From positions 2,806,028 to 2,870,027 of the forward strand of contig OZ020519.1 in the NCBI GenBank assembly GCA_963971425.1: a DNA stretch of 64,000 nucleotides. Direction: 5' to 3'. Shown here piece after piece: positions 18,418-60,952 of the stretch; the first letter of the stretch is position 1; every line of letters starts with the position of its first letter. The notes below the pieces were generated by a model. The model had not been told where the DNA came from and did not search any database. It saw only the letters and a program-made list of their open reading frames with translations. This DNA comes from Bryoerythrophyllum caledonicum (Eukaryota > Streptophyta > Bryopsida > Pottiales > Pottiaceae). The position numbers were made by a program, and so were the translations under genes.

Positions 18418-18436
18418 GAAGAAGAAGAAGAAGAAT

Positions 18437-18459
18437 GCCGGTTCCCGAAGGGAACCGGC
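18437..18459 (-). ncRNA. LINE 3'-terminal hairpin (copy A)
   Basis: A 23-nt perfect inverted repeat: 9-bp stem starting GCCGGTTCC, CTTCG loop. It sits directly before the (TTC)n tail. Copy B has the equivalent hairpin with paired changes. Such 3' stem-loops in LINE RNA are known to be bound by the element's own RT at the start of target-primed reverse transcription. Confidence 0.75.
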
Positions 18460-18668
18460 GTGAATAAAGTGTCTGTTCGTTCCATTGCTAAGACCATGCC
18501 CACCGGACAAGGAATTAGCGAACTGGAACTACTTCCCCCTTTCGAGGGTAGACACTATGTAACGAGTAGCCAGAAACCAACCAACCACGACCAAACTAAC
18601 AAAAAAAAAAAACAAAAAAACAAAACCAAACAGGCAGCCAATTAGGAAGAGACAGAGTGGCGAAGTTC

Positions 18669-21600
18669 CTAAGGGGGGTCTTGCCTATCAGGGAGGACTT
18701 GGTTGTTTTCGATTTTGCGTTTATGCAGTAAAATAGACATGGCATGTTGAATAGCGATGGTGTTGATATTTTTAAAGGTAGTTTTAATTGTATCAATGGG
18801 TATCTTGAAGGTATCTTCGAGAGTTTTCATAGATGGGATAAAGGTGGTGGCACGAGCGCCGGATGTGATAACAATAAGGGGGTCCACATTCCAGCCGAGG
18901 GCAATGATGTCGTCTATGAGGGGTTGGTATTTATCTATTTTGTTTTGTATTGTTTCCGGGGAGAATCTATCGTTGCAATATGTAAATTCGATGAATTGAA
19001 TGGTGTAGTCTTGGTTGATGTTCTCGGGTGGTGGGTCGTTGTATGGTAAACCTTTGACACAAAGAATGTCCGGTTTGAGCCTAGCGTTGCAATGACATCT
19101 TTGGGTCATACATGAGCATGGAAGTAGCCATGGGGGGACCGTGTTTTCTTGTGGATTGCTATTAAAAGTGCCGGCGTTCATAAGTATGAAACATCTCGAT
19201 TTATTGTAGGAGGTGATTAGTTTTCGGACTTCCCATACCGCTTTGTTATGTCTTTTAACAATTAGGGAGTGTATGTGGTGGTTTTGGCATTTGAGTAGCA
19301 CATGAAGCCATGTGTCGGGGTCTGTTGAGGGGCATATGGGGCATGTTATGGATGGGAATCTTTCTATTCCAAAGAAGAGTTGTTTGCGAGCGTTTCCCAT
19401 GTACTGACCCGTACGGAATTTGATGAGGCACGTTATTTGTGAGTCTGAGATGATGGGATTTTTCCAAAAGTTTGTAGAGAGTTCATTGTCTATGTCGTTA
19501 TTGTTAGTCCATTTTTCTATGTTAGGAATATTTTCTGAGATTGTATCCTGGTTGTTGTAGAGGTCTTGTTTTTTGAGATATTTGCCCAGAAATCTAATTG
19601 GGCCTTTGTCGGGGGTATCTTCTTTGGAAGGCCAATCTTCTTTTTGAAAGTAGTATGGGGTGGCATGAGCGTGTTCGTGAGGGTCTTTGGCGTTTTTGTG
19701 TGTTTTTTCTCGGCCTTCTTTTGCAAGTTTGTCTGCTTGTTCGTTGCCATCAATGTTGGCATGGGCTCTGACTTTGTGAAGGGTTGTGATTTGTGTACGT
19801 TTTTGTAACATTTGTACCATTGATGTTAGTATGGTTTGGTCGGGGTGACTGTTGTGAAGGGTTGGGTGTGTTATTTGAGTGTTTAGTAGGTAGAGTGCAT
19901 TTATACAATCGGTGAATATATGTGCAGGTTCATTTTTGTATTTTGTTGTGATGATTTGTAGTGTTTTGTGAATGGCCATGAGTTCTGCTCTGAGGATATT
20001 TTGTAGTCCATGGAGTCTTTTGGCTAGTTTAATTTCTTTGGTAGAATTGTATATGCCATAGCCAGCTTTTTCTCTTCGCCAAGAGCCCGGGCTAATTTGT
20101 TCCGGTGGTTTAAAGGAGCCGTCGGTGTAATAACTATATGCGGGGTTAAATTTTGGTGTGGTATGAGTTGGGTAGTCTGGGAGAGGGGGAGGTATGACGG
20201 AGTAGTTTAATGTGTTGTTGTCATAGTTTAATTTTGACCATTTTTTACTTTTGTTTACGGGGGTTTGTATGGGTGTTGGTGGGGCCGGTTTTGTGTATGG
20301 TCGTTGTATGTCTAGATTGTCTGTTATGGAGGTAAGTTCCGCAAGTTGTTCTAGAGAGCCCAGGTTTTGATTTTGATGATGGACGCATAGTATTTGTAAT
20401 GTAGATGGCTCTATTCGGGGTTTTTTTAGCTCGGGTGGGATATTAGGTTCTTCGTATGGTATTGTGTCTGCTTCGAATAATGCAATGATGTGGGAATCTG
20501 GGAATGGGTTTGAATGTTGGTTGTTGTTTTGGTACCAATTGTTGTTCGGTGTGACGATGATTGTTTTTGTGTTATTTGGATCGTGTTTGGCGGCAAGTCT
20601 AGCCCAATGTATGGCTTGTTCTATGTCTTTCTCGTTGTGGGGGTGAGCTATTCCATTTCCGATCCATTTGTGTTCAAAGGCCTTGCCTAGGGATCCAAAT
20701 ATTTTGTCTCTTTCGTATGGTGAGTAGAATTTATTTAGTTTGGTAGGACATGTGATCGGGGAGGAAAAGTATGAGTGTTCAATGTTAAAGGATGATATTA
20801 GTGAGTCTAAAATGGGGGTGGATATTGTGTATTGCGCATTTTTGAGGGGGTCAGTTTTTGGTATTCGATATTTATATCTTTGGTAAAGCCATATTAGTTC
20901 GGTTTCAAAGGGTTGGGTTGTTGGTTCAATGTTTGTAGGGGATTGTAATTTTGTATGATATTGGTTCCATAACCATTGGAGCCGGGTAATGGGTATGGTG
21001 TGTAGATGTCGGCCGTTTTCTTCGTATAGATGTGCTTGATTGTTATCTATTTGAATTGTGTTTGAGGATGTAAGGATATCATTTTCGGGGTTGCATTCTG
21101 TTGTGTAGATGTTTAAGAGTGGGATAATTATGGGTGGCGTTACGGACCTTGAGTCTGAGGATTGTTCTTGTGGATAGTGGGCAAGGATGATATCTGAGTA
21201 TATTTTGTTTTGGATCTTTTGGTAGTATTGTTTTAATTTTTCAGTGTTATGTGTGGAGGTATTGGTGTCATGCCGTGGAAAAAGGTCTCTTTGGGGGAGC
21301 CATTTATTGTATGTATTATCATTGTGTTGCCATTGGCATAGGTATTTTGTGTAAGTATTTTGTATGTTATTCGTATCTGTGTGTTGGATATGTTTATGGT
21401 TTATGATATTATTAATGAGATATGTGGTATGGTTTTTGGGGATGTATGTTGGGGGGCGGGGGTGGTATGTATGTGGAGGGTTAGGGGGATTGGTTGGTGT
21501 GGGAATATTTCTTGGGATGATGTTATTGTTGAGGGTGATGAATGGATCTTTAAGTGTATGAGAGTATGGGTGTATGTTGCAAGGAATATGACATATAGTG

Positions 21601-24600
21601 GGGCATGTTATGTGGCAAAATAGTTGTTTAGCAACACTTAGGGCACTCTTTATTAGTTTAGATGGGGTGAAGTGGTAGGTTTTGAAGTCCTCATTGTTCA
21701 TGATGTGTGTACCGTTAGGTAAGGTAATTTGGTTTAGTTCAAAAATATTTTTTGAGAGGAGTTTTTGTAGAAGCTTTTGGGAGAGTTGGGCATTGAGTGT
21801 GTTATGATTTAATGTTTCTTGGCGCCATAGTATTTCTAGTGTTGTAGGATTAGTGAGGAAATTCGGGAGCGTACTTTTAAGGTGGGCTTTAGCTATATGT
21901 TTTAATAAGAAGAATGTTCGTGTTATTGGTGATCTTATGCAATCACTATTTTTAATTCTGGGTATGTTTTCAGCGCCACCATATTGGGCAAGGACATAGT
22001 GAGTTAATCCATTATATATTTTCCCAAGCCTTCCTTTATCGTTTAAAGCATTTTGCAGTTGTTCGCCTATACCTCGGAGGTATGCGTTTTTTAGGGAGAA
22101 AGCTTCAAGTCCAAATAGATTATGTGGTAGTTGGGTTATTGCATTTGACATACATTTTGGTAGTCCACATATGGTTTTTTGTATGGCTATTATTTTTTTA
22201 TCAAGTTTTTTGATAGCTGGCATAGAGTATGGTACACCGTAGAAACTGTATGCCACACCTGGGCGTAGTACGGTATCAACCATTTTTATTTTTTGTTTCA
22301 TGGTGGCTGGGCATGTTGTTAGTTCTTTGCATTGTTTGATGAGCTTTGTGGTTGTAGTGTGGATTTGGATTTTCCATTTTAGTGAGGGAACAAGATTTGT
22401 ACCTAGGTATATGTATGGTTCGTTTTGGTGTAGTATAGGGATTGGTTGGTTGCGGTAGTTGATGTGAGAGGTTTGCATTAGGGCTTTGAAAGTGGTAGGG
22501 TTCAATTTAGATTTGTTTGGGCATCCGGTAGCGGCACATTTTGGAACTCCCACATCCATGCCAGCCCATTTACAATATCTATCAATTTTATGGAGTTGTA
22601 TTTGGATTGATTTGATTTTGTTAGTTATGGTGGCTAGGTCATCTGCGTATGCGGCGGAGTTTATTGTGACTTGTACTGTGCCGAAAGTATATCCATTATT
22701 GCCTCTTTCTAGCCATCTAAGTAGTGGTTCTAAAAATATAATAAATAGGTATGGGCTAAGGGTGTCCCTTTGTATAGTTCCTCTTTGGATGGGTATAGGT
22801 TTTGTTTTCCCAAAGTGTTCGCCGATATAGCAAGTAGATGATTGGGAATAGATGTTTCCAACAAGTGCAGTTGCCTCTTTTGGGTAGCCAAGGTCTGACA
22901 TTATTGCTAGAAGTCTGGCATGATCAATTGAGCCAAAGGCATTTTTGAAGTCCACGTATAGTATGTATATATCTTGGTTAGTAAATTTTGCGTCTTCTAA
23001 TGCGGCAATTATAGTTTGTATTTGCCGTGCGGTACTTCTCTCCGCTCTAAATCCTTCTTGACTATCATGTAGGATTTTGAATTTTTCGCCGTATGAGGAT
23101 AGTATGTGGGTCAGTGTACTGGTAAAAAGCTTATATATTGTGTTAGCTAGTGCAATTGGTCTATGATTGGGTAGCATGGATGGATCGCCTTTTTTGTATA
23201 GTAGAATTGTTGCACTTGTTTTCCATGAATTTGGTATTTGTTTTTGTTTATAGCAGTGAGAAAAGAATAGGAATAATAGTTTATGAAATCTTGGAGGCAT
23301 GTTTTTGAGTATTGAGTTTGGTATGCGGTCTGGGCCTGGGGCTTTATTATTTCCAAGATTTTGGAGGCATGTGTCGTATGTGGCTATGTTGAGGTATTTA
23401 TGTAGTGGAATTTCTGGTTCGCCCCGTTTGTCAAGGGTATATCCGTCCAGGTCGTGCCAAGGGTATTGGCGTATTGCACATGTGCATTCTATTGTATGTT
23501 GTGGCTCGTAATTATATGTTGGTATTGTTGGTCTATTGGTTTTTGTTTGTTGGTTAAATATTTCATTCGCAATGTCTTCGGGGCTAGTTAGAATATTATT
23601 ATATTGATCTTTGATACAATCCATTGGTGGGGATTCAAGGTTTTTAAAGACTTTTTTGTTAATTTTTTTGGGGCTGATTTCGTATAGTTGTCTGTATTTT
23701 GAGATGGTTTTTTTAATGCTTTCTTTTGTGTATTTTGTGATTATTTTCCGGGCTTGTATGTTGGCATTTATTGCAATTATCGCGATATTTTTTATCCATG
23801 TATCGTGGGGAAGGTCCGGAGGCGGCGGGGTAGGGATTTGGATGTGTTGTATATTTAGTAGTTCGTTGTGTATGAGGTGGTTACGCCATTGAGGGTTGTT
23901 TTTTACAATTCTAATGGTTTTACGTATGGTATGGTATGTGGTTAAGTGTTGTTTCCAAGTTTTAGAAAGTTTGCGGGGTAGATCCCCGCCTTGTTGAGAG
24001 GTTCTGTTTGTCATTTGGGGTATTGGGTGTGCTCTACAAGTTTGTTCTAGTGTATCAGAGATTTTATTGATGAGTTTGTCTAGAGAGTGGCATGCTTCTT
24101 GCCATTGTGCTTGTGTTAATTGACTATTGATTTCAAGAGTGTTTATGAGGGAGTCTATTTGTACGGTGTTTTCTTCGAAGAATTTTGTGTTGAATTTTTC
24201 TATGTTGGTTTTTGGGATGGGGTTGAGTATGCGTATAGTGTCTTTGTTTGGGATTGTAGGAGTTCTCCTAATTAGTGTGTTATTTGGGATGTGCAGTTGT
24301 ATGGGTGAGTGGTCCGAATTGAGAATAATATCTTTGTTTGTTGTGGAGGTGTATTGTGTGTTGTTGTTTGTATTTACATAGAAACCATCTATTAGACTCC
24401 AATCACTATAATTGTAGCCACCTTGTCTAGAGAATTGTGTATCGGTATTGATGTAAGTGAAGTTTAAGTTTTCTGTGAAGCGGCGCCATTGGTAATCAAT
24501 GTTTTGAGGGGGGGTGTGATGGTTCCCATTTTGGCGGCCAATTAGCGCTATGTCTCTATTGAAGTCTCCACATAATAGGTATGTATGATTGGGATGATTA

Positions 24601-26228
24601 TTAATATGGGTTGAAATAGTGTTTTGTATATCTAAGAGAAATCTAGTATCTTCGGGATGGGATGGCATATACATGTGAAAGATTAACCACGATTGTAGTG
24701 GGTGATTAGTGATTTTAATTATTTGAATGTATGGTGATATGTGCATTGGGGTAGGGATTTTGTTGATGTTGCCGGGGAATGTATATTTTTTGTGTATTAA
24801 TGTAAGGAGGCCACCGCGGCCCGGTGTGTATGGTCTCCTTTGTTGCATGCATCTTGTAAGTGCATGTGTATTGTTAAAGATGAATTTATAGTTTTGAAAT
24901 ATATTTTGTATATATTTTGTAGATTTTGTGGCGGTTAGTTTTGTTTCTTGTATAACTATAAGAGCCGGTGGTGTGTCTGTGTTTGCGACTAGAGTTTGTA
25001 AGCTAGGAAGGGCAGTGTTTAGTGAAGAGGCATTCCATGTGATTATGTATGTATTTTCTTGGTTTGGTCTAATGTTTTGATTTTGGTTTTGGGGAGGGAT
25101 GTAGGAAAGAGGTGGGGGTGGGTGGATGTATTCTGATATAGGGTCTAGACATTTTAGTGATTCGCTTATGAGGTTGTTAGGGAGGTAAGGGAATTTTAGT
25201 TTTATTATATCATTTGAGGGTGGTATGTCTTGACTATGTAAGAAGTCGTATAGTCTTTTATGTATTGAGTTCTCATGGTTTATAATATTTTGGTTGTCTA
25301 CTAGGAATTCAGTATAGGGGTGTGGAGTGTAAATGTGTCGTTCTGGTGGGTTTTGTAAGGTTAGTAAGGTTTGTAGGAGTGTATTAGTCCATGTAATTGT
25401 GTTCAAATTTTGTGGATTTAGAAGTTGGTTACATTCATCTATGTTTGGATGAGTAGTGATTATTAGTGCATATAAGATGTGGGGTGGTGGATGCGTATTT
25501 TTTTGTTGTATGTATTGGGCAATGTTTGGGTGGGAAGTGTTGTGTATGTGGTGTAATGTATGTGTGTTTTTTAGAAATGGTGCGAAGGGTTTTGCAATGT
25601 GTTCATATTCTGGTTGGAGTTTTATGGTATTAGGTATAAAGTAGATTTTGGCATTTTTTTTATGTGATGTAGGATGTCTTTTTAGTATATTGGGCATGGG
25701 TCCCGGGTTGGTTTCAATGTCTCCTCCTAGAAGTAGTAGAAGTTTGTGGTATATATGTTTAGTGGTGTATTTTAAAGGCTTTGTTGTGTTATTAATGACT
25801 TGTTGGTTTGGGGGTAGGTGGATGTTTGTATTTTGTGTGTGAGTTGTGGGTTTATTTATTTTTATAGTAGGTGTAGTTGTTTTCGTCTTTAGTTTATTTT
25901 TTGTCCATGTGCTTTTTGTGGTTGTTTTTGTTTTAGTAGTGTATGGATGTATGTATGATTGGTTGTATTTTATCTTGGTTGTTTTTGTCCGTGTGCATAT
26001 GTAACTATTATGTTTAAGACTATTTGTATGTGGGTTTATGTTGGTTTTTAAAGTGGCTTTTAAGTCCTTTTTTTCATATGCGGTGTTATTATATACTTTG
26101 TGGTTTGTACAATTGTTTGTTTTGGTGTTTGTATTAGTATTTGGTATGAAATATGTTTTGGCATTCTTTTTGTGCGAAGCGGGGTGTCTTTTTAATATGT
26201 TGGGCATGGGTCTTGGGTTAGTCTCCAT
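18669..26228 (-). CDS. LINE ORF2: 2A, AP-endonuclease, RT, RNase H, CCHC, restriction-like endonuclease
   Basis: A single 2519-codon frame. Residues 170-177 are a 2A-like DIETNPGP. Residues about 392-648 are an AP-type endonuclease (TWNASS, IQETKL, LCGDFNRD, SDHSPI). RT covers about 955-1280 with 'APGPDRIPNSIL', 'YVDFKNAFGSIDH' and AYADDLA (1193-1199). Residue 1154 is Arg (codon 22767-22769) where copy B and the RT family have Gly in the Q-G-D-x-L-S-P motif, so activity is doubtful. Near 1625-1650 is a chromodomain-like 'YLCQWQHNDNTYNKWLP'. RNase H starts near 2030 (YYTDGSF, ILRAELMAI, FTDCINAL, NEQADKLAKEG). Near 2290-2315 is a knuckle 'CPIC...WLHVLLKC', then KPDI (about 2386) and 'IQFIEFTY...KIDKY', matching the R2-type endonuclease. 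The Met at residue 1 lies inside a decayed upstream 2A, so it may not be the native start; upstream frame is broken. Confidence 0.9.
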   Translation of the reverse strand: METNPRPMPNILKRHPASHKKNAKTYFIPNTNTNTKTNNCTNHKVYNNTAYEKKDLKATLKTNINPHTNSLKHNSYICTRTKTTKIKYNQSYIHPYTTKTKTTTKSTWTKNKLKTKTTTPTIKINKPTTHTQNTNIHLPPNQQVINNTTKPLKYTTKHIYHKLLLLLGGDIETNPGPMPNILKRHPTSHKKNAKIYFIPNTIKLQPEYEHIAKPFAPFLKNTHTLHHIHNTSHPNIAQYIQQKNTHPPPHILYALIITTHPNIDECNQLLNPQNLNTITWTNTLLQTLLTLQNPPERHIYTPHPYTEFLVDNQNIINHENSIHKRLYDFLHSQDIPPSNDIIKLKFPYLPNNLISESLKCLDPISEYIHPPPPLSYIPPQNQNQNIRPNQENTYIITWNASSLNTALPSLQTLVANTDTPPALIVIQETKLTATKSTKYIQNIFQNYKFIFNNTHALTRCMQQRRPYTPGRGGLLTLIHKKYTFPGNINKIPTPMHISPYIQIIKITNHPLQSWLIFHMYMPSHPEDTRFLLDIQNTISTHINNHPNHTYLLCGDFNRDIALIGRQNGNHHTPPQNIDYQWRRFTENLNFTYINTDTQFSRQGGYNYSDWSLIDGFYVNTNNNTQYTSTTNKDIILNSDHSPIQLHIPNNTLIRRTPTIPNKDTIRILNPIPKTNIEKFNTKFFEENTVQIDSLINTLEINSQLTQAQWQEACHSLDKLINKISDTLEQTCRAHPIPQMTNRTSQQGGDLPRKLSKTWKQHLTTYHTIRKTIRIVKNNPQWRNHLIHNELLNIQHIQIPTPPPPDLPHDTWIKNIAIIAINANIQARKIITKYTKESIKKTISKYRQLYEISPKKINKKVFKNLESPPMDCIKDQYNNILTSPEDIANEIFNQQTKTNRPTIPTYNYEPQHTIECTCAIRQYPWHDLDGYTLDKRGEPEIPLHKYLNIATYDTCLQNLGNNKAPGPDRIPNSILKNMPPRFHKLLFLFFSHCYKQKQIPNSWKTSATILLYKKGDPSMLPNHRPIALANTIYKLFTSTLTHILSSYGEKFKILHDSQEGFRAERSTARQIQTIIAALEDAKFTNQDIYILYVDFKNAFGSIDHARLLAIMSDLGYPKEATALVGNIYSQSSTCYIGEHFGKTKPIPIQRGTIQRDTLSPYLFIIFLEPLLRWLERGNNGYTFGTVQVTINSAAYADDLATITNKIKSIQIQLHKIDRYCKWAGMDVGVPKCAATGCPNKSKLNPTTFKALMQTSHINYRNQPIPILHQNEPYIYLGTNLVPSLKWKIQIHTTTTKLIKQCKELTTCPATMKQKIKMVDTVLRPGVAYSFYGVPYSMPAIKKLDKKIIAIQKTICGLPKCMSNAITQLPHNLFGLEAFSLKNAYLRGIGEQLQNALNDKGRLGKIYNGLTHYVLAQYGGAENIPRIKNSDCIRSPITRTFFLLKHIAKAHLKSTLPNFLTNPTTLEILWRQETLNHNTLNAQLSQKLLQKLLSKNIFELNQITLPNGTHIMNNEDFKTYHFTPSKLIKSALSVAKQLFCHITCPTICHIPCNIHPYSHTLKDPFITLNNNIIPRNIPTPTNPPNPPHTYHPRPPTYIPKNHTTYLINNIINHKHIQHTDTNNIQNTYTKYLCQWQHNDNTYNKWLPQRDLFPRHDTNTSTHNTEKLKQYYQKIQNKIYSDIILAHYPQEQSSDSRSVTPPIIIPLLNIYTTECNPENDILTSSNTIQIDNNQAHLYEENGRHLHTIPITRLQWLWNQYHTKLQSPTNIEPTTQPFETELIWLYQRYKYRIPKTDPLKNAQYTISTPILDSLISSFNIEHSYFSSPITCPTKLNKFYSPYERDKIFGSLGKAFEHKWIGNGIAHPHNEKDIEQAIHWARLAAKHDPNNTKTIIVTPNNNWYQNNNQHSNPFPDSHIIALFEADTIPYEEPNIPPELKKPRIEPSTLQILCVHHQNQNLGSLEQLAELTSITDNLDIQRPYTKPAPPTPIQTPVNKSKKWSKLNYDNNTLNYSVIPPPLPDYPTHTTPKFNPAYSYYTDGSFKPPEQISPGSWRREKAGYGIYNSTKEIKLAKRLHGLQNILRAELMAIHKTLQIITTKYKNEPAHIFTDCINALYLLNTQITHPTLHNSHPDQTILTSMVQMLQKRTQITTLHKVRAHANIDGNEQADKLAKEGREKTHKNAKDPHEHAHATPYYFQKEDWPSKEDTPDKGPIRFLGKYLKKQDLYNNQDTISENIPNIEKWTNNNDIDNELSTNFWKNPIISDSQITCLIKFRTGQYMGNARKQLFFGIERFPSITCPICPSTDPDTWLHVLLKCQNHHIHSLIVKRHNKAVWEVRKLITSYNKSRCFILMNAGTFNSNPQENTVPPWLLPCSCMTQRCHCNARLKPDILCVKGLPYNDPPPENINQDYTIQFIEFTYCNDRFSPETIQNKIDKYQPLIDDIIALGWNVDPLIVITSGARATTFIPSMKTLEDTFKIPIDTIKTTFKNINTIAIQHAMSILLHKRKIENNQVLPDRQDPP
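25698..25727 (-). other. 2A-like ribosome-skipping site (copy A, second module)
   Basis: Encodes GGDIETNPGP preceded by the Leu-rich HKLLLLL. It fits the D-[VI]-E-x-N-P-G-P consensus of 2A peptides, at which the ribosome omits the Gly-Pro bond. This would release ORF2 protein beginning with Pro at residue 177. Confidence 0.85.
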
Positions 26229-26237
26229 GTCTCCTCC
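26208..26237 (-). other. Decayed 2A-like site (copy A, first module)
   Basis: Encodes GGDMETNPRP. It is the upstream duplicate of the 2A module: the following PMPNILKRHP-x-SHKKNAK is shared with the second module 510 bp downstream. Gly to Arg (GGA to AGA) in the essential NPGP should abolish skipping. Confidence 0.8.
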
Positions 26238-26281
26238 AATTAATATTAGTAGTTTGTAGTAGATGAGTTTTTTGTTTTGTT

Positions 26282-28711
26282 TTAGAATTTTTTGTTTTGT
26301 TTTAGAATTTTTTGTTTTTGAATGTGGCTTTGGTATTTGTGTTTTTTTGATTGTACGTGTTTATCTTTGTATGTGTGTATGTATATGTATGTGTTTCGTT
26401 GATGGTGTGTGGCTGTCTTTGTGTGTGTGTATGTAGTTTTATGTGGTATTATATTAGTATTCTTTTGCATGTTTGTATTAGTGTATGTCACGGTTTTTGT
26501 CTTGGTATTTGTATCAGTATCTTTGTTAGTATTTGTGTTAGTATTCGTATGAGTACACGTACCACTATTTGTATTGGTATTTGCATTTGTATAAGTATTT
26601 GTATTTGTATTTATACACATACCAGTATGTGTATCAGTATATGTACTAGTATTTGTATCAGTATATTTATAAATATACTCACCGGTGTATGTATCAGTAT
26701 AGGTATCAGTATACGTATCAGTATATGTACCCGTATATTGAAATAATGAGTTTTCTAAAAGATTTCTATCTAAACATATTTTGTCTAAAACTATGATTTC
26801 TAAAAACAGATTGATATATATTTTAATCAGATTCGTATATATTCTTACTTTTATTAGAATTTCTATTTTTAGTAAATCTATTTTTGGCACCTCCAGCGCC
26901 CTTCCGGCCGGCGAATCAAAAATCCCCCTTCCTATTTTAATATTTCTACATACTCTCAACAAATTTCTACTATTTAATCGTAAACTCTCCTCATCTTTAT
27001 ATATAACAATTTTATTATTACTATTTACCTTCCATTTATCCATGTATTTTATATTCCAACTTCTATTTTTAGACTGCACTCTTATATTATCACTATCTTC
27101 TCTATTTATTTTTACTCTGAGATTTTTGTTTCTCATTACAAGTTTGGTTAATTTTCCATCCCTTGTTTTTGAATTCCTTAGGAAGCATATTCTATTTTTA
27201 GTACTGCTGTTTGTAGCTATAGTCTTCCTATTTTTATTCTTATTATTTTTTATTCCCTTTACTAATTTGTTGCATTTTCCATCCCTTATTTTTGAATTTC
27301 TTTGGAAGCATATTCTATTTTTAGTACTGCTGTTTATAGCTATAGTCTTCCTATTTTTATTCATATTATTTTTTATTCCCTTTACTAATTTGGTGCATTT
27401 TCCATCCCTTATTTTTGAATTTCTTAGGAAGCATATTCCATTTTTAGTACTGCTGTTTATAGCTATAGTCTTCCTATTCGTATTCTTATTATATTTGATT
27501 CGCATTACAATTTTGTTGTATTTTTCATCCCTTATTTTTGAATTTCTTAGGAAGCATATTCTATTTTTAGTACTGCGGTTTATAGCTATATTCTTCCTAT
27601 TTATTTTCTTATTATTTATTATTCCCATTACTAATTTGGTGCATTTCCCATCTTTTATTTTTGATTTTCTTAGGAAGCATATTCTATTTTTAGTACTACT
27701 GTTTATAGCTATGTTCTTCATATTTGTATTCTTATTATAATTAAATCCCATTATTCATTTGGTGAATTTTCCATCCCTTGTTTTTGAATATCTTAGGGAG
27801 CATATTCTATTTTTAGTACTACTTTTTATTGTTATGTTCTTATTATTACTTTTCTTATGATAATGGTTTTCTACTTTACCCTTTATTTTCTTCTTACATA
27901 TCCTCTCCATTTTTGTTATTTTATTTTTAATATTACTTGCTCTAATTAAAACCTTTGAAATTTTATAAATATCTATTTTCTTCCTATTTAATTTATTATA
28001 TCTCTTTTTACTCTTCTTGATTTTCCTATTTTTAGCCATTTTAGTATTCCTTGTCTTTTGATGGTTTTTGGGTTTAGAATCCCTTCTACCCTTATGTATC
28101 TTTATTACAATAAGTTTATGATCGTTTTCATTTATATTGTTCCCTATTTTGTTATATGTAGTTATGATACTTATTTTCTTCTTCCTTGTATTGTTTATTT
28201 TAATTCCATCTTTTCTCTTATTCCTTTTATTTTTTATTTTGGTTTTGATACTTTTCTTTTTGGAATTTTTACTTAGTTTGTGTGCGAAAGAGTATATTAT
28301 TATTATCATTTTTTCAATTTTGTGTATTGATTTTTTCGGTGGTTGATAAGTTGTTGTTTGAGTATTTATACTTATATCTATATCCGTGTCCATATCCTTA
28401 CTTGTATTTGTATTTACATCAATATTTTTTCCCGTATATGTGTTTATGCTTGTATTCGTATCTGTACTTGTAGATGTATTCGTCTCTGTATTCTTATCTA
28501 TATTTGTATATGTCTCCGTATATGTATCAGTATTTATATCGGTATCAGTATATGTTATAGTGTATATATCTTTAATCATACGAGTATATATATCAGTGTA
28601 CTTGCTGGTATACGTATTAGTATATTCCCTGGTGTACGTATCAGTATACGTATTACTGTACATATCAGTATATGCTTTAATGTACGTGTCAGTATACGTA
28701 TTAATGTACAT
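26282..28711 (-). pseudogene. LINE middle frame: Tyr-Thr-Asp-Thr repeats and Lys/Asn-rich region
   Basis: Two consecutive same-frame segments (28711-27755 and 27751-26282) are separated by one in-frame stop at 27755-27757. They contain two blocks of degenerate TYTD tetrapeptides (about 28350-28750 and 26430-26740) encoded by a 12-bp tandem repeat close to TATACTGATACA, and a Lys/Asn-rich section between. Copy B retains only one TYTD block, fused in frame to the 2A modules. In copy A the frame ends at 26282 because of a 20-bp tandem duplication. Function is unknown; it may be a linker or N-terminal leader of the ORF2 product. Confidence 0.6.
27130..27840 (-). repeat. 123-bp tandem repeat, six units
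   Basis: The landmark 'ggaagcatattc' recurs at 27181, 27304, 27427, 27550 and 27673, with a variant near 27796, each step being 123 bp. The period is a multiple of three and encodes a 41-residue repeat centred on 'INSSTKNRICFLRNSKIRDG'. Copy B lacks it. Confidence 0.9.
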
Positions 28712-28971: not shown

Positions 28972-31900
28972 TCACATTTTTGACGAGTCTTCTTCAATCA
29001 ATATGGATGGTTTGGACCCCGTGATGTTTTGCAACATTGCAAAGGTAGTGCCAACACATTCTTGGATCTTCAACATTTGGTTTTTGATTTCTTGGAGCTC
29101 CTTAGCTTTTGCCTCCGCTTGTTCTTTGACTTCTTGTCGCAATATTTTGTTGTTTGCTTCAAATGCCTCCACTAGGTCCTTCTTGGTGATGGCTTGAGAC
29201 GGGGTGTGAAGATTGAAGGTCTCCACTGTGTTGATGATGGCTTTGTTGATGTCTTCAAAGCCAAACTCTATGAGTTGAGCTTGGGTGGGAGGCTCGATTC
29301 CATCAATGCTCCTCCTATGAGGGGCAAACTCCACAAAGTGGCCATCTATGGGAATGGTTTTCCCCACAAACGTCCTATATACAATTGGGTTAGCACATGC
29401 AACATTTGCACTTCCATTATGGCACACACCATTGTCTTTGTGAAACCAAATGGAACAAATGTTAGAGTCTCCTATAATCTTAGAGATAGCATTAGTAGTC
29501 TCATTAACATTCATTAGTATGGGAAGGTGGGTGAGAGTAAGGGTAAGGGCATCTTTCTTAGCCTTCATTTCCTTGGAAATGTGAGTTCCCCCAAGGGGCT
29601 TCTTGGTTTCCATGATTTCTTGGCGTGCGGTTACTTGTAGTTCTTGGATTTTCTTGGCTTGTTGCGGTGTGGTGGTCAAAATGAAGGCAAATCTATCTCC
29701 TTTTGCCTTCTGCACGTTAGTAACTTCGAAATCATGCCCACGTTTGAAGCTAGACTCAAGGACCTCTTTGAAGAGGTGGTTAGCGGTAATGTTATGCAAT
29801 GAGGGACTTTGTATTTTAACTGAAAGGCTAGAATGATGAGCAATGCCATGATAGGTTTTACATACCTTTCCCACCACGTTAGTTGCATCAATTTTGAGGA
29901 TGAAGGGTCTAATCCCCTTGAGGAGGAGTAAACCATCAATTTCGGGTTTAGCAAGATGCAATTTGATAAGTCCAGACCATACACCTTTCTTCCCTCCTCC
30001 TTGTTTGATACTTAGACAATGAATAGAAATAGGTTCAATGAGCTTCTTACCAAGAGGGATGTCCATGTCTTTGAGGCGCTTGGTAACCATCATCTTGACT
30101 TCGTCATGCAATATAGGGTTAGTAGGTAGTTCAAAGTGGATAGCAATTTGAAAGTCAAGAGCCAAGCCCGTACCTTCGTCCACGGGGATGTTGGTGGGCA
30201 CTTGGATAAGATTATAGTGTTGTCCTCCTAGGCCTCCTGCCCCCCGCGACTGTGGATAGTGAATTTGTGGGATGCGTGGGAAGGCTGTCCTTGCGTTTTT
30301 GACTTCTTGAGCTTCGCTTTCCTTAAGGCCTCTGGTCACCATGTCTTCAATTGTTTCCTCATTGAGGAGTTCATCTAATCCCTCCTCCAGTGCTAGCTCC
30401 TCCATCACATGGAAACCGAGCCAAAATTTGAAGCAACTAATTTCGGGGATAGTGATGAGAGCCGTACCTTCTTTCCCCTTCTCCTCTTCCCGAATGGGCT
30501 TTTGTTTCTTGTTGGCTGATGCTTCTTCATGTTGTTGTTTCTCCATTTGCTTTCCTTGAAGCCTCTTCAGGCTTTCGCTAGGGGACTCAATCTCCATGTG
30601 GTCTTCATAGTTGAGGGCTTTCTTCACACTTCGCGTATCCATATCTGCCCCGCCCCAATTTACTACAGCTCCTAATGTGCACCGGTTAGTCAGAGGAAGG
30701 GTAGAATTACTTACCTTGAGAGGGTCGCTGGAGGGTTGTTGAAGCTTACAGGGTTGCTGGGAGGTTGTAGCAGGTCGCTGGAGGGCTTTAGTGGGTCGCT
30801 GGGGGGATTCAGAAGGTCGCTGGGGGGGTTGAGTAGGTCGCTGGAGGGGATTGGTAGGTCCCTGGTGCTGTGCGTCGGGTCGCTGTACAGTACCAGGTGT
30901 TCGTTGGAAGCGGGCTTCTAGATTGCAGGCGGACTGCCTCTCTTGTGCTCGGGTATTCTTGTTCAGCCCTGCGTTATGTTCTTGCGTTGTACGTCTTTCG
31001 ACGCGTGGGCTGTGTCTTGCCTGGGGTCTCTTCTTGCTGCGCTCTTGTACGTCTCCAGTGCTTTGGCTGTATTTCGCCTTGTGTCCCTTCTTGCTGCACT
31101 TGCGTGTGTCCTCACTTGTTGTGCGTCTTGTGATGTGTATTTGTTGTTGTACTTGTGCTCGTCCTTCAGTATCTTGCAAAGTTCGTGTATATGTTGGGTC
31201 GTAGGTGTTCGGGGATGTACTGGGTGTATGACTGTTGAGTTCTTCGTTCCCGGTTCCACGCTTCAGTAGTGTAGCTCCAGGTCTTTCTCTTCTGCTGCCG
31301 CATTTTCTTCTTTTTTGTGACAGGCCTTCTACTGCTGTTGATGTCTTTGTTTCGGGTAGCGTGAAGTTGGGATGATCTGTACCTTGATGCTGGTTTTCTT
31401 CTACCTGATCTGCATGGAGAGGAGAGGGTCTTGCGACGTACCTTTTAACGATCTCTGGTGAGTATGTTGCTTTGGATCTGTAGTCGTTAGTTATTGTGGA
31501 AGTTGCATGTTGCTGATGTAGTTGATCTGGTCTGCAGGGTGGTAATCTTGATGCAGGTTTCGGGACGATTTCTTCAGATCTGTGAGAAGATAGACAATAC
31601 TTCTGCAATGTATACGCAAGACCAGATCTAACAGGGCGTTGTTTACTATAGGTTTTAGCTTGTATACAACTGCTTTTCGTATATTGTGTGAGATTTTTTA
31701 GGGTTAGTACGTAGATGTATTTTTTGTTTAGCTTGTACAGATAGTGAGTATACCAAGAGAGGGTGTTAGGATAATCATGAAGTGAATGTGTACTGAAGTT
31801 GGAAGGACGTAACCTGTTTGTGGTGCGAGGTGGTCGCTGGTTCTGTGTGGGCGTTATAACTTCCTTCGCCCTCCTCTCGTGTGATCGTTGTGGCTTCCTG

Positions 31901-32802
31901 CTTGGTAGTCTTTGAATTGCTGCTGACACACATTCACTGCAGATGGTGTAAGAGAGAAGAGTGAATGGAGGGTAGAGGAGGGGGACCTGTGGTATGGATC
32001 TTCTTCGTGTGGCGCGTGGTTTTGGTCGCTCTTGTGCTGTATGTTGTCTCAGGTCTAGGTGTTGGGTTGGCGGTTCTTGGTCATGTTCCTGCGTATTCCC
32101 TATTGCTGCTAACACACATTTACTGTGATCGATGTAAGAGGAAAGAGTTAGTGGAGGGTATGGGAAGGGAACCTGTAGTATGGATCTTCGTGTGTCGCGT
32201 GATTTTGGTCGCCCTTGTGCTGTGTGTTGTCTCAAAGTTTGGTGCTGGATTTGCGGTTCTTGGTCATCTTCATTTGTACTGCCTGTTGCAGCTAACCCAC
32301 ATTCACTTCGGTCAATATAGGAGGGAAGAATTAAGGGAGGGTAGGGTAGGGGAACCTGTGGTGTCGATTTGCTTTGTGTGTTATACGAGTTTCGTCGCCC
32401 TTGTGTTGTGTGATGTGCCGAGACTTGGGGCTGGTCTTGCTGGTTCGAGTCGTTTGCTTGTGTACTTACTGTTGCAGTTCGTGTTTGCTTCCAGCCTTGG
32501 TGTTCTTTTTTCTGATCCTGGTCTGCTGTGTTGCCTGTCCCAATTCTTGCGCATCCCCTGTTGCAGTTCGTGTGTAGTCCTGGTTGCCTCGGAGCTTGTT
32601 TCTGTCTGACCTGTGCACAACTTTTACAATTCGTGAAATATTTGCAATTTTTTTGTTGGTGATATTGATTAGATTTGAAGCTATTAGGACTAGGGGGGTT
32701 GTTAGAGTTCTGTGAATCAGGTCTAGTGGTGAAACCTAATTGAAACTGTGTGCTTATCGTGGGGTATCTAGTGGCAGCATGGAAAAAACCAACAAAAAGC
32801 AA
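28972..32802 (-). CDS. LINE ORF1 (copy A), RNA-binding-type protein with N-terminal repeats
   Basis: 1276 codons. The last 556 residues, from the Met at 30642, align throughout with ORF1 of copy B at roughly half identity, and I think that Met is the functional start. The region upstream of it is open but low in complexity: Gln/Arg/Pro-rich, with 'QRPT.PPQRP' repeats. The conserved part has a block around 'FPRIP', 'LDFQIAIHFE' and 'GIRPFILKID', then an RRM-like pattern ('ALTLTLTHLPI' ... 'NGSANVACANPIVYRTFVGK' ... 'FVEFAPHRRS') and a C-terminal coiled coil. RRM-type folds are usual in LINE ORF1 proteins, which coat element RNA. The RRM assignment is inference from pattern only. Confidence 0.75.
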   Translation of the reverse strand: MLFVGFFHAATRYPTISTQFQLGFTTRPDSQNSNNPPSPNSFKSNQYHQQKNCKYFTNCKSCAQVRQKQAPRQPGLHTNCNRGCARIGTGNTADQDQKKEHQGWKQTRTATVSTQANDSNQQDQPQVSAHHTTQGRRNSYNTQSKSTPQVPLPYPPLILPSYIDRSECGLAATGSTNEDDQEPQIQHQTLRQHTAQGRPKSRDTRRSILQVPFPYPPLTLSSYIDHSKCVLAAIGNTQEHDQEPPTQHLDLRQHTAQERPKPRATRRRSIPQVPLLYPPFTLLSYTICSECVSAAIQRLPSRKPQRSHERRAKEVITPTQNQRPPRTTNRLRPSNFSTHSLHDYPNTLSWYTHYLYKLNKKYIYVLTLKNLTQYTKSSCIQAKTYSKQRPVRSGLAYTLQKYCLSSHRSEEIVPKPASRLPPCRPDQLHQQHATSTITNDYRSKATYSPEIVKRYVARPSPLHADQVEENQHQGTDHPNFTLPETKTSTAVEGLSQKRRKCGSRRERPGATLLKRGTGNEELNSHTPSTSPNTYDPTYTRTLQDTEGRAQVQQQIHITRRTTSEDTRKCSKKGHKAKYSQSTGDVQERSKKRPQARHSPRVERRTTQEHNAGLNKNTRAQERQSACNLEARFQRTPGTVQRPDAQHQGPTNPLQRPTQPPQRPSESPQRPTKALQRPATTSQQPCKLQQPSSDPLKVSNSTLPLTNRCTLGAVVNWGGADMDTRSVKKALNYEDHMEIESPSESLKRLQGKQMEKQQHEEASANKKQKPIREEEKGKEGTALITIPEISCFKFWLGFHVMEELALEEGLDELLNEETIEDMVTRGLKESEAQEVKNARTAFPRIPQIHYPQSRGAGGLGGQHYNLIQVPTNIPVDEGTGLALDFQIAIHFELPTNPILHDEVKMMVTKRLKDMDIPLGKKLIEPISIHCLSIKQGGGKKGVWSGLIKLHLAKPEIDGLLLLKGIRPFILKIDATNVVGKVCKTYHGIAHHSSLSVKIQSPSLHNITANHLFKEVLESSFKRGHDFEVTNVQKAKGDRFAFILTTTPQQAKKIQELQVTARQEIMETKKPLGGTHISKEMKAKKDALTLTLTHLPILMNVNETTNAISKIIGDSNICSIWFHKDNGVCHNGSANVACANPIVYRTFVGKTIPIDGHFVEFAPHRRSIDGIEPPTQAQLIEFGFEDINKAIINTVETFNLHTPSQAITKKDLVEAFEANNKILRQEVKEQAEAKAKELQEIKNQMLKIQECVGTTFAMLQNITGSKPSILIEEDSSKM
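31900..32500 (-). repeat. 183-186-bp tandem repeat, about three units
   Basis: 'ggagggta' landmarks at 31967, 32153 and 32336 lie within three similar units. In the ORF1 frame they encode about 60-residue repeats containing 'STPQVPLPYPPL', 'PSYIDRSEC' and 'LRQHTAQ'. Confidence 0.8.
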
Positions 32803-33300
32803 GAAAAAAACTATGCAATAATAAGAGAGAGGGTTGAGGGAGGTGCGTAGCTCAAGGGGAGGCGGTGTAGGCTCTGATAGTAGCTCGTGTTGATCTTCTT
32901 GCTCCAGCTTTGTTAGGTTGATGTGTCTGGATCTGGGCTGCCTTGGGAGTTTGTGTATGAGCTATGTACGTGTATCCTTCAACGCTGTCAGATCTACCAC
33001 TTGCTCTTCCGATCTGGGTGAGGTTAAGACCGAATTGCCCAACACTTAAAGTTCCAGCTCTACAGATGACTTGCAACAAGATCTTGCAACAAAGCAGACT
33101 CTCACATCCAGAAGGATTGCACGGCTAGATCTGTCTAGCATAACCCCTCTTCCAACACTTCACGTCCCTCCCAAGCTCATACACTTCTAGATCTGGACTA
33201 AAGGTGGGGTTTCCAACAAGCCCAACACCCCTTGTTGCCCTCTACTCTAGATCTGCGACTAACTCCCAAACGTCCCTCACCAGAAAACACGGAGCTCCTT
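32803..33300 (-). promoter_or_regulatory. LINE 5' region with AGATCT motif cluster (copy A)
   Basis: Contains repeated (C)AGATCT or close variants, for example near 33126, 33186 and 33248. LINE 5' regions carry internal promoters; the same motif is dense in the otherwise diverged 5' region of copy B. The outer end shares 'GAGCTCCGT' and 'CTGGTGAGGG' with copy B. Confidence 0.5.
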
Positions 33301-47828: not shown

Positions 47829-48475
47829 CACCTACGTGGACCATGAGATCCGGGGAGAATCTGCAGCTGTAATAGATTAGGCTGAACATCATGTACACCG
47901 GGTGTACAATTCTACATAACCCCACTTCACGGAAATCACTGTAGTTTGTTGATGCTTGCATGGATTGGAGATTGGAGAGATCCGTTGGAAAGCTAACATG
48001 GAACTTGAAATGCGTTCACAAGACATGAGAGAGAGAGTGGCTAATTGTGGAAAGAGTTAGAAGAGCAAAAGCACCAAAAAAGACCTTGCCATGGCCTTGT
48101 AAGTGTTAATTGATAGGCAATATTTTTGTTTTAACATCCTCTTTGAGGTGGGCTTGCTTCAATAGAGCTTTCTCTCTTGTGCAATGAAATTTCAGTCAAT
48201 TTTTGAAGTAAAACGAAGACACATGTAAATAAAATTGGGATCTCGAGTTGCTCTATTTCATGACATTGAATCATTTGTCAAATAGAGGGTTATTCTAGTC
48301 ACCTTGTTGTTCAAGGGTTTAGGACGACAAGCCCACAGGTGGTCAAAGTATTCTGTGAATAGAACATCCACCAATTTATTGCTACTTGATCCACAAACTG
48401 AGATTATTTGTGTGGATTTGTGCGCTTTTGGTGAATGCGGTGAGAATGTGCGCGAGGGGGACTACACCAATTTAT
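47829..48475. other. Flank of LINE copy B
   Basis: No recognised gene. A plus-strand frame from 48304 ('LLLLDPQTEIICVDLCAFGE') runs into the LINE at 48487. If the LINE is removed it would continue for about a dozen codons past the target site before a stop. It may be a fragment of host coding sequence. Confidence 0.35.
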
Positions 48476-48486
48476 GTGAAGTGGAG
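48476..48486. repeat. LINE copy B target-site duplication GTGAAGTGGAG (left)
   Basis: The same 11 bases recur at 60953-60963 directly after the (TTC)n tail. A preceding T on both sides could make it 12. This fixes both ends of copy B. Confidence 0.92.
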
Positions 48487-50865
48487 AATTTTTTCGAGAT
48501 GACCAGTGCGTGAGCTCCGTATTTCCTGGTGAGGGGAGGTGGGAGACTTAGCCTGTGAGCTGCGAACTGCGTGCAATAGGAGTTGGCTGGCCCTATTGAG
48601 AGCCCCCGTAGTGTGCAGATCTGTGGTAGTTTGGTGAGATTTGAGATGCAGTAGACGTGTTGGATGGCTCAACACCAGATCTGAGGAGGGGAGTTGAAGG
48701 TTGTCTCAAGAAGGTGCAGATCTGTGCAAGTACGATCTGAAGCGGGGAACTTAGTGTTGGGGCTAGATCTGCCACCACTTAGACCACATAGAACACGACC
48801 CATCCCAGATCTGGAGCACAGGGATCATATCTGGAAACCTCTCCAACAAGTCTCCCTCTCCCCAACCCAGGAACCCAAGTCTCAAGATAGGGCGAAGTCA
48901 TCACTCAACACTACTGCTACGCAGCTCCAATTCGACACCACAGGCTATCCCTTACCCTCCCATCTATTGCAAAGTTTCATGGTTAGAAGTAGATCTTGTT
49001 TTTGCATTATGCAGTCGAGTACATACATTAACATGTATTCTTAAGTGGAGTAAGTTTAGGAATAGAAGGGTTGCCCGCAGTGGGAGCAGGACAGTAACAA
49101 TCGTCACAGCGTGGAAATGCACCCCACGCAGCAGAGCTGTCCCCAAACAAACCGGAGCAGCAGCATCAAACCCTACAACAACTAGGAGTACACCTCGCAG
49201 CATAGCGGATCTGAATCGAAACAGAGCTGCAGCACATACTACATCCTCGTCGACAGATCTGCGCACACAACCAAACGAATCAGCTTCAACGGACCCAGGT
49301 ACGTCTCTCAATAACCAATACTACCATTCTTTTATTTGTTGTATTTACACAATCATCCCCACTCCACAAACCTCAGCCTCTCTCCCACTTAACACTACGA
49401 TCTACACATCTAGATACATCACAAGAAGCACAACACATAGACAGAATACACCAATTAGACAAACCCTAGAACACACAACTACTCTCTCACACACAGTAAC
49501 AAATAGACACAATACCTCAAGTGATAGACCTACCTCCTCCCGACACACCTCCTCCAACATCCCGTGGCCTAGAGCATCCCCTCACGCGTGGAAGCGCTGT
49601 CCATTCCCCTGTAGACACAAAGAAAAAAATATATATATATCAAAAAACCATCAACAGGAAGTGTTAGAAACCCTGAACAAACTAAGACGGAGCAGTTTGA
49701 AGAGCGGCAATAGACACAAGGGCAAGCTCGCGGATAGTCCCTGCGAAACAGAGAACTCGAGGACAGTACCTGCGAACCACGAAGGAAGTTCAGTGGGGAG
49801 AGCTCGCGAACAGTACCTGCGAAGAAGACTGAAGAGCTGCAGCGGACTAAGTGCCGAAAGACAGCAGTAGAGCGGACACGAATACAAGGGCGAGATCGGC
49901 ACAAGGCAGCGGACTGGTCCGAAGATCGGAGACAAACGCGGCAGTAGACATAGCAAAGGACGCGGGGGCGAGCGACAGCAGGTGCGAGGCCGAGCAAACG
50001 CAGCAGCAGCAGACGCAGCAGCGAACACAGCAGTAGTAGATGCAGCAGCGAAAGCAGCAACAGTAGACGCAGCAGCAAACGCGGGAGCAAGACGGAACCC
50101 TCCAGGTACACCCCAGATCGCAAACTCCATCTCTCATAATCCCCACCCCCAGATCTCCACCCCCCCCTCCCCACAACCTTACTCTACCACTTCGTCGTCC
50201 TCCCTCATCCTCAGCTGATCTTCTCTCACCTCCCCATTGAACACCTCCCCACGCCCTCACTAAAACCTCCATCCCTTCCCACCCGACCCTCCCTGACCCC
50301 CCCCTCACTCTCCCTTCTATCATCCTCAGTACACCTCCCCCCGCTCCTGCTACTTTCCCTCCCCACCCGACCTTCCCTAACCCTACCCTCACTATCCACC
50401 CTCTCAACCTCACTCCCCCCTGCCATTTCCCAGCCCCCTTCCCAGCTACAAACTGAACCTCCCCTCCTCCCCGATTACCCCTCCCCGCCCTCACCCAAAC
50501 CCCAACTGTCCTCACCCCTCCTCTCAACGCTCCTTCACGACTCCCTGAAAAAACATCCACCTCTCGACCCTGAACTCCCTCCCCGTCTCAACCCTGAACT
50601 CCATCCCCCGCGCACAAGAGGTCGGTACAGAAGGCAGAGAAGTACTGGTAACCCCCTACAGCGACCCGCAAAACCCCGCGGCTACCAAAATAAGTCTGTA
50701 GCGACCTGCAGAACCCCGCAGCGACCCCCCAACCAAGGCAGCGACCCCCCAATTCGGCATAGCAACCATGTAGCCTCTCTCAACGACCCACTAGCTTCCC
50801 ATAGAGACCCCCCAAACCCTCCCTGCGACCCTCCAACTTCCACCTGCGATCTCTCCTTTTCGAAA
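48487..50865 (+). promoter_or_regulatory. LINE copy B 5' region
   Basis: AGATCT or close variants occur many times between 48610 and 49260. A GCA-rich tract (49980-50095) encodes or mimics poly-Ala in one frame. 50148-50600 is C-rich with little G. 50650-50860 repeats 'agcgacccNccaa', as does the equivalent part of copy A. A splice-donor-like CCCAG|GTACGT occurs at about 49298. No long frame in register with ORF1. Confidence 0.6.
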
Positions 50866-52545
50866 ATGTCCAGTGGGGACCCGAAAAGAAACTTATTCTT
50901 TGAGGAAGCCATGGAAATAGAGTCCCCTACGGCAATCTCCACCACATCTGTAAAGGAGAAGTTTGCAAGAAAACATGAGGAAGTGACCAGCAGCTCCAAG
51001 AAATACAAGAACACCGCAGAAAGAAGAGGTAAGTCCCTCACACTCGAACCCTTGAACATGGGTTTTAACTTCTGGTTTGGATTTGAGGTGATGGAAACTC
51101 TTGCACAAGAGAAGGGCATGGAGGAGCTCCTTAGAAAAGAGACAGCTCAAGATCTTATGATTAGGGGCATGAAGAAGGAGGAGGCAGAGGAAGCAAGCAT
51201 TGCCAAAGTTGCCTTTCCAAGGATTCCCCAACAATTATACCCAAGTACAAGAAACGGCGTGGAGGGCCAACATTTCAACATAACCCAGGTTCCTTGTGAT
51301 ATTATTGTCAATAACACCTCAGGTTTGACATTAGACTTCCAAGTTGCTATTCATTTTGAGCCTCCTACCTCCCCCATGATGCATGATGAAGTTAAAAACA
51401 TGGTTGTTAAAAGACTAAAACTTATGGAAATTGAACTTGGTGAGGACCTCATTGATCCTATCTCCATACAATGCCTTAGTGTTAAAAGAGGGGGAAAAAA
51501 AGGAGTATGGGCGGGTATTGTTAAATTGCACCTATTAAAACCAGAAATTGATGGTCTTATGATGCTCAAAGGCATTAGACCTTTTATACTCAAAATTGAT
51601 GGCCACAACACCATAGGTAAGGTTTGCAAGAGCTTCCATCACATTGCAAGTTCGAACCTATCCGTGAAAGTGAAAAGTTATTCCATTGTAGGAATTTCAG
51701 CACAAGCACTCTTCAAGGACATTCTACACAATAGCTTCACAAGAGGGCAAGAAATCGAAGTCACGGGAGTACACAAGTCTAAGGAGGACTCTCATGCGTT
51801 CATCATGGCTACAACCCCGGAGCAAGCGAAAAGGATCAACCTCCACCAAATCACAACTCAACACGAAGTACTCCATGTCAAGCACATCTCCGGAGGACGA
51901 GCCACGCAAACTTCCAAAGCTAAGAAAGACGCTCTAACCTTAACCCTCTATCCTCTACCTCTACGCATAAATGTCATTGACACTACCAACATAATCCATA
52001 AAATCATAGGTGCAAGCAACATTAAAGAGACTTGGTTCCATAAAGTTGTTGGAACTAGACACAATGGTAGTGTCAATATACATTGTGCTAACCCCATTGT
52101 GTACCGTGAGTTTGTGGGAAAAACATACAACATTGAAGGTAATTATGTGGACTTTGCACCACATCGAAAGAGTTTGGAAGGCGAAGAGCCGCCCTCACAA
52201 GAACAAATCCAAGAATTTGGCTTTGACGACATCAACTCCGCCATGGTGAACACGGTGGCAACATACAAGATGAAAGAAGCACCTCCTTCTTTGACAAAGG
52301 AGGACATAGTGGAAATTGTGGAGGAAAGCAACAAGAAGATGAGATTGGAAGTGAAGGAGTATGTGGATGCAAAGAATGAAGAACTAAGGGTCCAAATGCT
52401 AAGTATCCAAGAGTCCATGGGAGCCGCATATGCAACAATGCAAGCCATCAAAAACTCAAACGGAATCAGCTTCAACGGACCCAAAAATAGACTTACTAAA
52501 AATAGAAATTCTAATAAAAGTAAGAATATATACGAATCTGATTGA
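50866..52545 (+). CDS. LINE ORF1 (copy B)
   Basis: 559 codons starting MSSGDPKR. It is colinear with the last 556 residues of copy A ORF1 at about half identity ('GFNFWFGFEVMETLAQEKGM', 'VAFPRIPQQLYP', 'TLDFQVAIHFEPPTSP', 'LKGIRPFILKIDG', then 'CANPIVYREFVGK' and 'VDFAPHRKS'). The conserved pattern suggests an RNA-binding domain followed by a coiled coil (about residues 470-535). The final about 20 residues differ from copy A because the sequence switches to copy-A-type DNA at about 52487, ending at TGA 52543. It overlaps the next frame by 116 bases. Confidence 0.8.
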   Translation: MSSGDPKRNLFFEEAMEIESPTAISTTSVKEKFARKHEEVTSSSKKYKNTAERRGKSLTLEPLNMGFNFWFGFEVMETLAQEKGMEELLRKETAQDLMIRGMKKEEAEEASIAKVAFPRIPQQLYPSTRNGVEGQHFNITQVPCDIIVNNTSGLTLDFQVAIHFEPPTSPMMHDEVKNMVVKRLKLMEIELGEDLIDPISIQCLSVKRGGKKGVWAGIVKLHLLKPEIDGLMMLKGIRPFILKIDGHNTIGKVCKSFHHIASSNLSVKVKSYSIVGISAQALFKDILHNSFTRGQEIEVTGVHKSKEDSHAFIMATTPEQAKRINLHQITTQHEVLHVKHISGGRATQTSKAKKDALTLTLYPLPLRINVIDTTNIIHKIIGASNIKETWFHKVVGTRHNGSVNIHCANPIVYREFVGKTYNIEGNYVDFAPHRKSLEGEEPPSQEQIQEFGFDDINSAMVNTVATYKMKEAPPSLTKEDIVEIVEESNKKMRLEVKEYVDAKNEELRVQMLSIQESMGAAYATMQAIKNSNGISFNGPKNRLTKNRNSNKSKNIYESD

Positions 52546-53110: not shown

Positions 53111-53140
53111 GGAGGAGACATGGAGACTAACCCAAGACCC
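53111..53140 (+). other. Decayed 2A-like site (copy B, first module)
   Basis: Encodes GGDMETNPRP, with the same Gly-to-Arg change as copy A, so the change predates both copies. Here the upstream frame (YYKLLILS) is intact. Confidence 0.8.
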
Positions 53141-60937: not shown

Positions 60938-60952
60938 GTTCTTCTTCTTCTT

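What the first reader, a model, noticed from the sequence alone, without database searches (positions are those of the whole stretch)
18669..26228. LINE ORF2 with two different endonucleases plus RNase H
Seen: an AP-type endonuclease (QETKL, GDFN, SDHSP) at the N-terminus and, after RT and RNase H, a CCHC knuckle followed by KPDI and IEFTY...K..KY, the pattern of the R2-type PD-(D/E)XK nuclease. Known: most LINEs have only one of the two; Dualen/RandI elements of Chlamydomonas have both. Inference: this is a Dualen-like lineage outside the volvocine algae, with an open 2519-codon frame preserved in copy A and colinear domains in copy B.
Basis: partly seen in the sequence, partly recalled or inferred. 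Interest (0 to 1): 0.88.

Follow-up and report, generated by a model that had tools for sequence, protein, structure and literature searches.

The report
Dual-nuclease retrotransposon with cap-enzyme-like domain

The parts
18669..26360 (-). ORF2 frame of copy A, stop to stop (2563 aa; ATG frame 18669-26228)
   Evidence: shorter at the N-terminus than five other copies with 3503-3757 aa
26208..26252 (-). degenerate 2A-like motif LLILIGGDMETNPRP (NPRP instead of NPGP)
25698..25742 (-). canonical 2A-like motif LLLLLGGDIETNPGP; also kept in subfamily copy L060
24291..25088 (-). APE-type endonuclease (WNASSLN, QETKL, GDFN, SDHSP); dN/dS 0.097
22011..23360 (-). reverse transcriptase (AAYADD; GTIQRD in copy A against GTIQGD in copy B); dN/dS 0.067
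20346..21128 (-). PCIF1/CAPAM-like methyltransferase-fold domain; tetrad reads HPHN (within 20625-20654); dN/dS 0.111
19710..20138 (-). RNase H with D-E-D-H-D; dN/dS 0.079
18690..19370 (-). CCHC knuckle (19287-19343) plus R2-type restriction-like endonuclease (LKPDI 19065-19079, IEFTY 18978-18992, KIDKY 18927-18941); dN/dS 0.076
18437..18460 (-). 3' terminal hairpin CGCCGGTTCCC-TTC-GGGAACCGGC
18418..18435 (-). (TTC)6 tail; 3' end of copy A
28972..32961 (-). frame containing ORF1 of copy A (part shared with copy B at 29014-30852); no Pfam hit
48487..60951 (+). copy B, about 12.5 kb between its target-site duplications
48475..48486 (+). target-site duplication of copy B, 5' side (TGTGAAGTGGAG)
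60952..60963 (+). target-site duplication of copy B, 3' side (TGTGAAGTGGAG)
50866..52545 (+). ORF1 of copy B (559 aa from its ATG)
52403..60668 (+). ORF2 of copy B, colinear with copy A (95.6% over 8.2 kb), in several frames
60914..60951 (+). 3' hairpin and (TTC)n tail of copy B

Best explanation
A recently active LINE of the Dualen/RandI type in a plant genome, probably a moss. Shown: one ORF2 frame carries an APE endonuclease, RT, a PCIF1-like methyltransferase-fold domain, RNase H, a zinc knuckle and an R2-type restriction-like endonuclease; each of these domains has low dN/dS in the one pair of subfamilies compared; copies end in a hairpin plus (TTC)n, lie at diverse sites, and in two copies short target-site duplications were found, one copy being 5'-truncated. 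Inferred: the canonical 2A-like peptide separates a repetitive N-terminal leader from the enzyme; the RT recognises the 3' hairpin of its RNA; the element inserts by target-primed reverse transcription, with one nuclease cutting the first strand and the other the second; the PCIF1-like domain, whose catalytic tetrad is degenerate here, most likely binds the RNA (perhaps its capped 5' end) rather than methylating it.
Against: The division of labour between the nucleases is not shown. The selection test rests on one pair of copies, one of them (A) damaged, and linkers are also constrained (EN-RT 0.166, RT-MT 0.108), so low dN/dS is not peculiar to the domains. Only copy B's 5' end was defined for a long copy. 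No duplication was found for copy A or for the four full-length copies with a usable 3' flank (the 5' ends of most of these were probably outside the stretch), a fifth copy gave no usable flank, and in four of five copies the 5' junction lay outside. The 2A activity is untested.
Confidence: 0.86

Rival explanations
1. The dual-nuclease arrangement is a chimera: an APE-type LINE joined by nested insertion or mis-assembly to the 3' end of an R2-type LINE.
For: Nested Dualen insertions do occur (L066; L035 by reading its flank).
Against: 145 scored C-terminal matches in this genome, many in frames over 2400 aa; 31 of 86 relatives have all five domains in the same order; one RT clade.
Confidence: 0.02
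2. Only one nuclease works; the other is a vestige.
For: Most LINEs do with one nuclease (established knowledge; PMC4640811, passages).
Against: EN and REL have similarly low dN/dS, 0.097 and 0.076; motifs of both present; both present in 31 of the 37 relatives with MT, RNH and REL (in the other 6 no EN was detected, and whether they are truncated was not checked).
Confidence: 0.1
3. The PCIF1-like domain is an active N6-adenosine methyltransferase acting on the element's RNA cap or on DNA.
For: Homology and fold; 12 of 38 relatives with letters at the tetrad read NPEY, and single ones SPPF, HPPF or CPPF, against NPPF in PCIF1.
Against: All 41 rows in which the site was printed for this genome (38 distinct places) read HPHN, HPHT or YPHN, without the asparagine and the aromatic residue; 25 of 38 relatives have neither NPEY nor SPPF.
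Confidence: 0.25
4. The sequences are contamination from a green alga in the assembly.
For: The named relatives in the dual-nuclease clade are green algae; the assembly has two different rbcL sequences.
Against: Copies are spread over many chromosome-size contigs; in the window they lie beside other DNA that includes exons reading, by eye, as plant pyruvate kinase.
Confidence: 0.02

Closest known systems
Dualen / RandI LINEs of green algae (Kojima and Fujiwara 2005, recalled, not held; passages seen in PMC4640811, PMC3636483, PMC8226300, PMC3747384)
   Same: APE and R2-type endonuclease in one ORF2, RNase H, short tandem-repeat 3' tail instead of poly(A), RT clade shared with Haematococcus proteins
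   Different: Host is a plant, probably a moss; tandem 2A-like motifs ahead of the APE domain; TTC tail instead of ATT or CTATTT; a PCIF1-like domain, named for these elements in no passage I read, though it also occurs in the algal relative P0038
R2-type and other RLE-only LINEs
   Same: CCHC knuckle, RLE fold, PD and K residues
   Different: 27 of 86 relatives with RT and RLE only showed no EN, RNH or MT; RT outside their clades; 3' flanks here differ from copy to copy
PCIF1/CAPAM cap N6-methyltransferase
   Different: Part of a retrotransposon protein; the NPPF site reads HPHN in the window copy; only the core is matched
2A-bearing APE-type LINEs (Odon et al. 2013, seen only as a reference in PMC12846837)
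   Same: ExNPGP-type motif ahead of the LINE enzyme
   Different: Here in a dual-endonuclease LINE, in tandem, the first one degenerate

Membership tests
Dualen/RandI LINE | N-terminal APE endonuclease with catalytic residues | tested here: met
   Pfam 1.1e-5; exonuclease III chains at E 2.7e-4; motifs
Dualen/RandI LINE | C-terminal RLE with CCHC knuckle | tested here: met
Dualen/RandI LINE | RNase H | tested here: met
   Pfam 1.9e-12, D-E-D-H-D
Dualen/RandI LINE | RT in one clade with dual-endonuclease elements, outside RLE-only clades | tested here: met
   44-row clade at 100/99; 8 of 86 relatives with an RT piece under 330 aa were dropped
Dualen/RandI LINE | RT groups with the type elements DualenCr of Chlamydomonas reinhardtii | not testable with these tools
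   type sequences not at hand; Haematococcus P0038 and P0041 used instead
Dualen/RandI LINE | 3' end in a short tandem repeat, not poly(A) | tested here: met
   (TTC)n in nearly all 3' ends (L010 has a T run after one TTC); RandI repeats in Table 3 of PMC3747384 (passage)
R2-type LINE | RLE as only endonuclease, RT among RLE-only rows | tested here: not met
   APE present; RT elsewhere
PCIF1/CAPAM methyltransferase | PCIF1 methyltransferase core by sequence and fold | tested here: met
PCIF1/CAPAM methyltransferase | catalytic NPPF tetrad | tested here: not met
   HPHN in the window copy
PCIF1/CAPAM methyltransferase | methyl transfer to the cap-adjacent adenosine | not testable with these tools
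   needs biochemistry
2A (StopGo) peptide | D(V/I)ExNPGP motif | tested here: met
   second motif GGDIETNPGP meets it; the first, GGDMETNPRP, does not
2A (StopGo) peptide | co-translational separation | not testable with these tools
   needs a translation assay

The most novel reading that the evidence does not exclude
The MT-bearing Dualen clade (37 of the 40 relatives that have both RNase H and RLE carry the domain) has captured an mRNA-cap-enzyme (PCIF1) domain that in most members no longer shows the catalytic signature but is still kept, acting as a reader that tethers the dual-nuclease reverse transcriptase to the capped 5' end of its own RNA and so couples 5'-end recognition to second-strand cutting.
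Probability: 0.25. Interest if true: 0.8.

Novelty: new variant of a known kind. Interest (0 to 1): 0.62.

Why it matters
It gives a recently amplified dual-endonuclease LINE family in a plant, in which the open question of why a LINE would keep two nucleases can be tested. It also ties a cap-methyltransferase fold to a LINE clade, which suggests a way for a LINE to find its own capped RNA.

Tried and rejected
Chimera, vestigial nuclease and algal contamination were considered and scored low (see rivals). Site-specific insertion, expected by analogy with most RLE elements, was not supported: 3' flanks differ from copy to copy. One search (protein search with residues 1720-2563) returned nothing among 2698 candidates; I read this as a limit of the word search, since relatives found do carry those domains. 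A single-sequence PDB search of a stretch holding the MT domain found only designed TPR proteins at E 0.36-0.66; the profile search found PCIF1. No Rfam match at gathering threshold and no tRNA in the window. ORF1 has no Pfam match at E <= 1. Alignments A1 and A2 were set aside because the MT query was pulled against RT columns at its start.

Literature (open-licence papers only). Searches (2 papers; 1; 14; 74, 20 listed; 0; 14, 10 listed; 1774, 10 listed, off topic; 95, 40 listed, mostly German-language noise; 33, 25 listed): no listed title or abstract start names a PCIF1 domain in a LINE or Dualen in a moss. Passages of six papers were read; none in full. Kojima and Fujiwara 2005 and Iyer et al. 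2016 (which I recall as a possible place for such a mention) are not held. Priority is not established.

Full report
Observation. Motifs are placed. Two copies lie in the window; they match at 95.6% over 8.2 kb in opposite orientation.

Distribution. The RT region found 86 relatives: 31 have EN, RT, MT, RNH and REL, in the same order in all 31; 6 have all but EN; 27 have RT and REL only; 3 have EN, RT, RNH and REL without MT; 19 have other, partial sets. In the RT tree (79 rows; 8 relatives with short RT pieces dropped) the window sequence falls in a 44-row clade at 100/99. All rows there that have RNase H and RLE also have MT; four rows (P0005, P0016, P0039, P0044) show EN and RT only. The three dual-nuclease rows without MT form a separate group. 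The place inside the clade is weak (87/68). Named members in the tree are the Haematococcus proteins P0038 and P0041; Pleodorina and Parachlorella proteins were found but dropped as short.

Host and abundance. The genome (437 Mb, 894 contigs, one contig of 65 Mb) has light-harvesting proteins. One of these is 97% identical to an unnamed cluster of 134 members; several unnamed rows follow at 90-91%; among named rows at 95% coverage or more Sphagnum fallax (92%) and S. troendelagicum (91%) are closest, with Marchantia and some seed plants at 88-89% (120 of 1079 rows listed). Its best single-domain PDB matches are 8htu and 7xqp, which I recall as the moss Physcomitrium. I infer a moss; a land-plant marker search (PF02365) never ran. 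C-terminal matches: 145 scored, best first, of 8905 candidates, identity 98-100%. PF12237 matches: 150 scored of 2614 candidates; 33 of the 150 share one score and a 3087-aa frame, a second subfamily. Among the 30 best-scoring fetched copies the 789-bp C-terminal DNA is 98.2-100% identical (median 99.0%); these were picked by score, so older copies are not represented. This points to a recent burst.

Element anatomy. Copy B runs from 48487 to 60951 between 12-bp duplications TGTGAAGTGGAG. L062 is a 5'-truncated copy with a 9-11-bp duplication. For copy A only a 10-base piece of the tail itself recurred upstream; four full-length copies with a usable 3' flank gave none, and a fifth had no usable flank; in four of the five copies the 5' junction lay outside the stretch. 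A hairpin was found at the 3' end of 35 of 37 sequences, 34 of 36 places; a (TTC)n tail follows and flanks differ (29 of 32 sources matched, one of them, L013, wrongly; one search replaces it). Copy B's hairpin has one mismatch and two pairs changed on both sides (my reading of the letters). ORF1 of A and B are 49% identical over about 620 aa. ORF2 frames in five other copies, chosen for length, are 3503-3757 aa; the first of these shows three 2A-like motifs, GGELEINPGP, GGDMETNPRP and GGDIETNPGP. L060 keeps the last one. Among 86 relatives, 5 have an ExNPGP motif of this kind by pattern.

Selection. Nei-Gojobori dN/dS between copy A and L060 (dS 0.24-0.47 in the named domains): EN 0.097, RT 0.067, MT 0.111 (0.063-0.190), RNH 0.079, REL 0.076. 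Linkers: EN-RT 0.166, RT-MT 0.108, 2A-to-EN 0.137, the stretch before the second 2A 0.268, and the 55-codon MT-RNH linker 0.56 with a wide interval. So the nucleases and the PCIF1-like domain are under constraint, but most of ORF2 is. One pair only, and copy A has damage of its own (QRD, shifted frame).

Mechanism. Shown: architecture, constraint, tail, one truncation and two duplications. Inferred: 2A separation, RT recognition of the hairpin, target-primed reverse transcription with a division of labour between the nucleases, and an RNA- or cap-binding role for the PCIF1-like domain.

Known and new. Dual-nuclease LINEs are known as Dualen/RandI (PMC4640811, PMC3636483, PMC8226300: passages). 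RandI tails are short repeats (PMC3747384, passages). 2A in APE-type LINEs is known (a reference in PMC12846837). No listed title or abstract start named the PCIF1 domain in these elements or Dualen in a moss, but the lists were capped and the two most relevant papers are not held. Precomputed Pfam domains already show PF12237 in many public relatives.

Noticed in passing
window 1570-5871 (-): Pieces that read, by eye, as a broken Ty1/copia-type element.
   Followed up: no
window 7469-10144 (-): Exons that read, by eye, as a plant pyruvate kinase.
   Followed up: no
window 27122-27829: About six copies of a 123-bp tandem repeat between ORF1 and ORF2 of copy A, open in one frame with a basic repeat; not matched in copy B.
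   Followed up: partly
L060 1-9168: Second Dualen subfamily (33 of 150 scored rows with a 3087-aa frame); no ORF1 match in the 10 kb read and only the second 2A-like motif kept.
   Followed up: partly
L066, L035: Dualen copies that appear inserted into other Dualen copies (L035 by reading its flank).
   Followed up: partly
L053, L054, L055: Two different rbcL sequences in one assembly (C821 against C894; L054 on C590 was not translated).
   Followed up: no
P0001, P0008, P0016, P0024, P0038, P0040, P0046: Relatives carry extra domains: Ulp1 (P0008), Josephin (P0016, P0038, P0040, P0046), C5 DNA methylase (P0024), weak OTU below Pfam's cut-off (P0001, P0008), and a PHD-like stretch read by eye (P0038).
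   Followed up: partly
window 18001-26000 and 52001-60000: Strong strand bias: the ORF2 coding strand is C-rich and G-poor (GC skew up to 0.56 in size).
   Followed up: no
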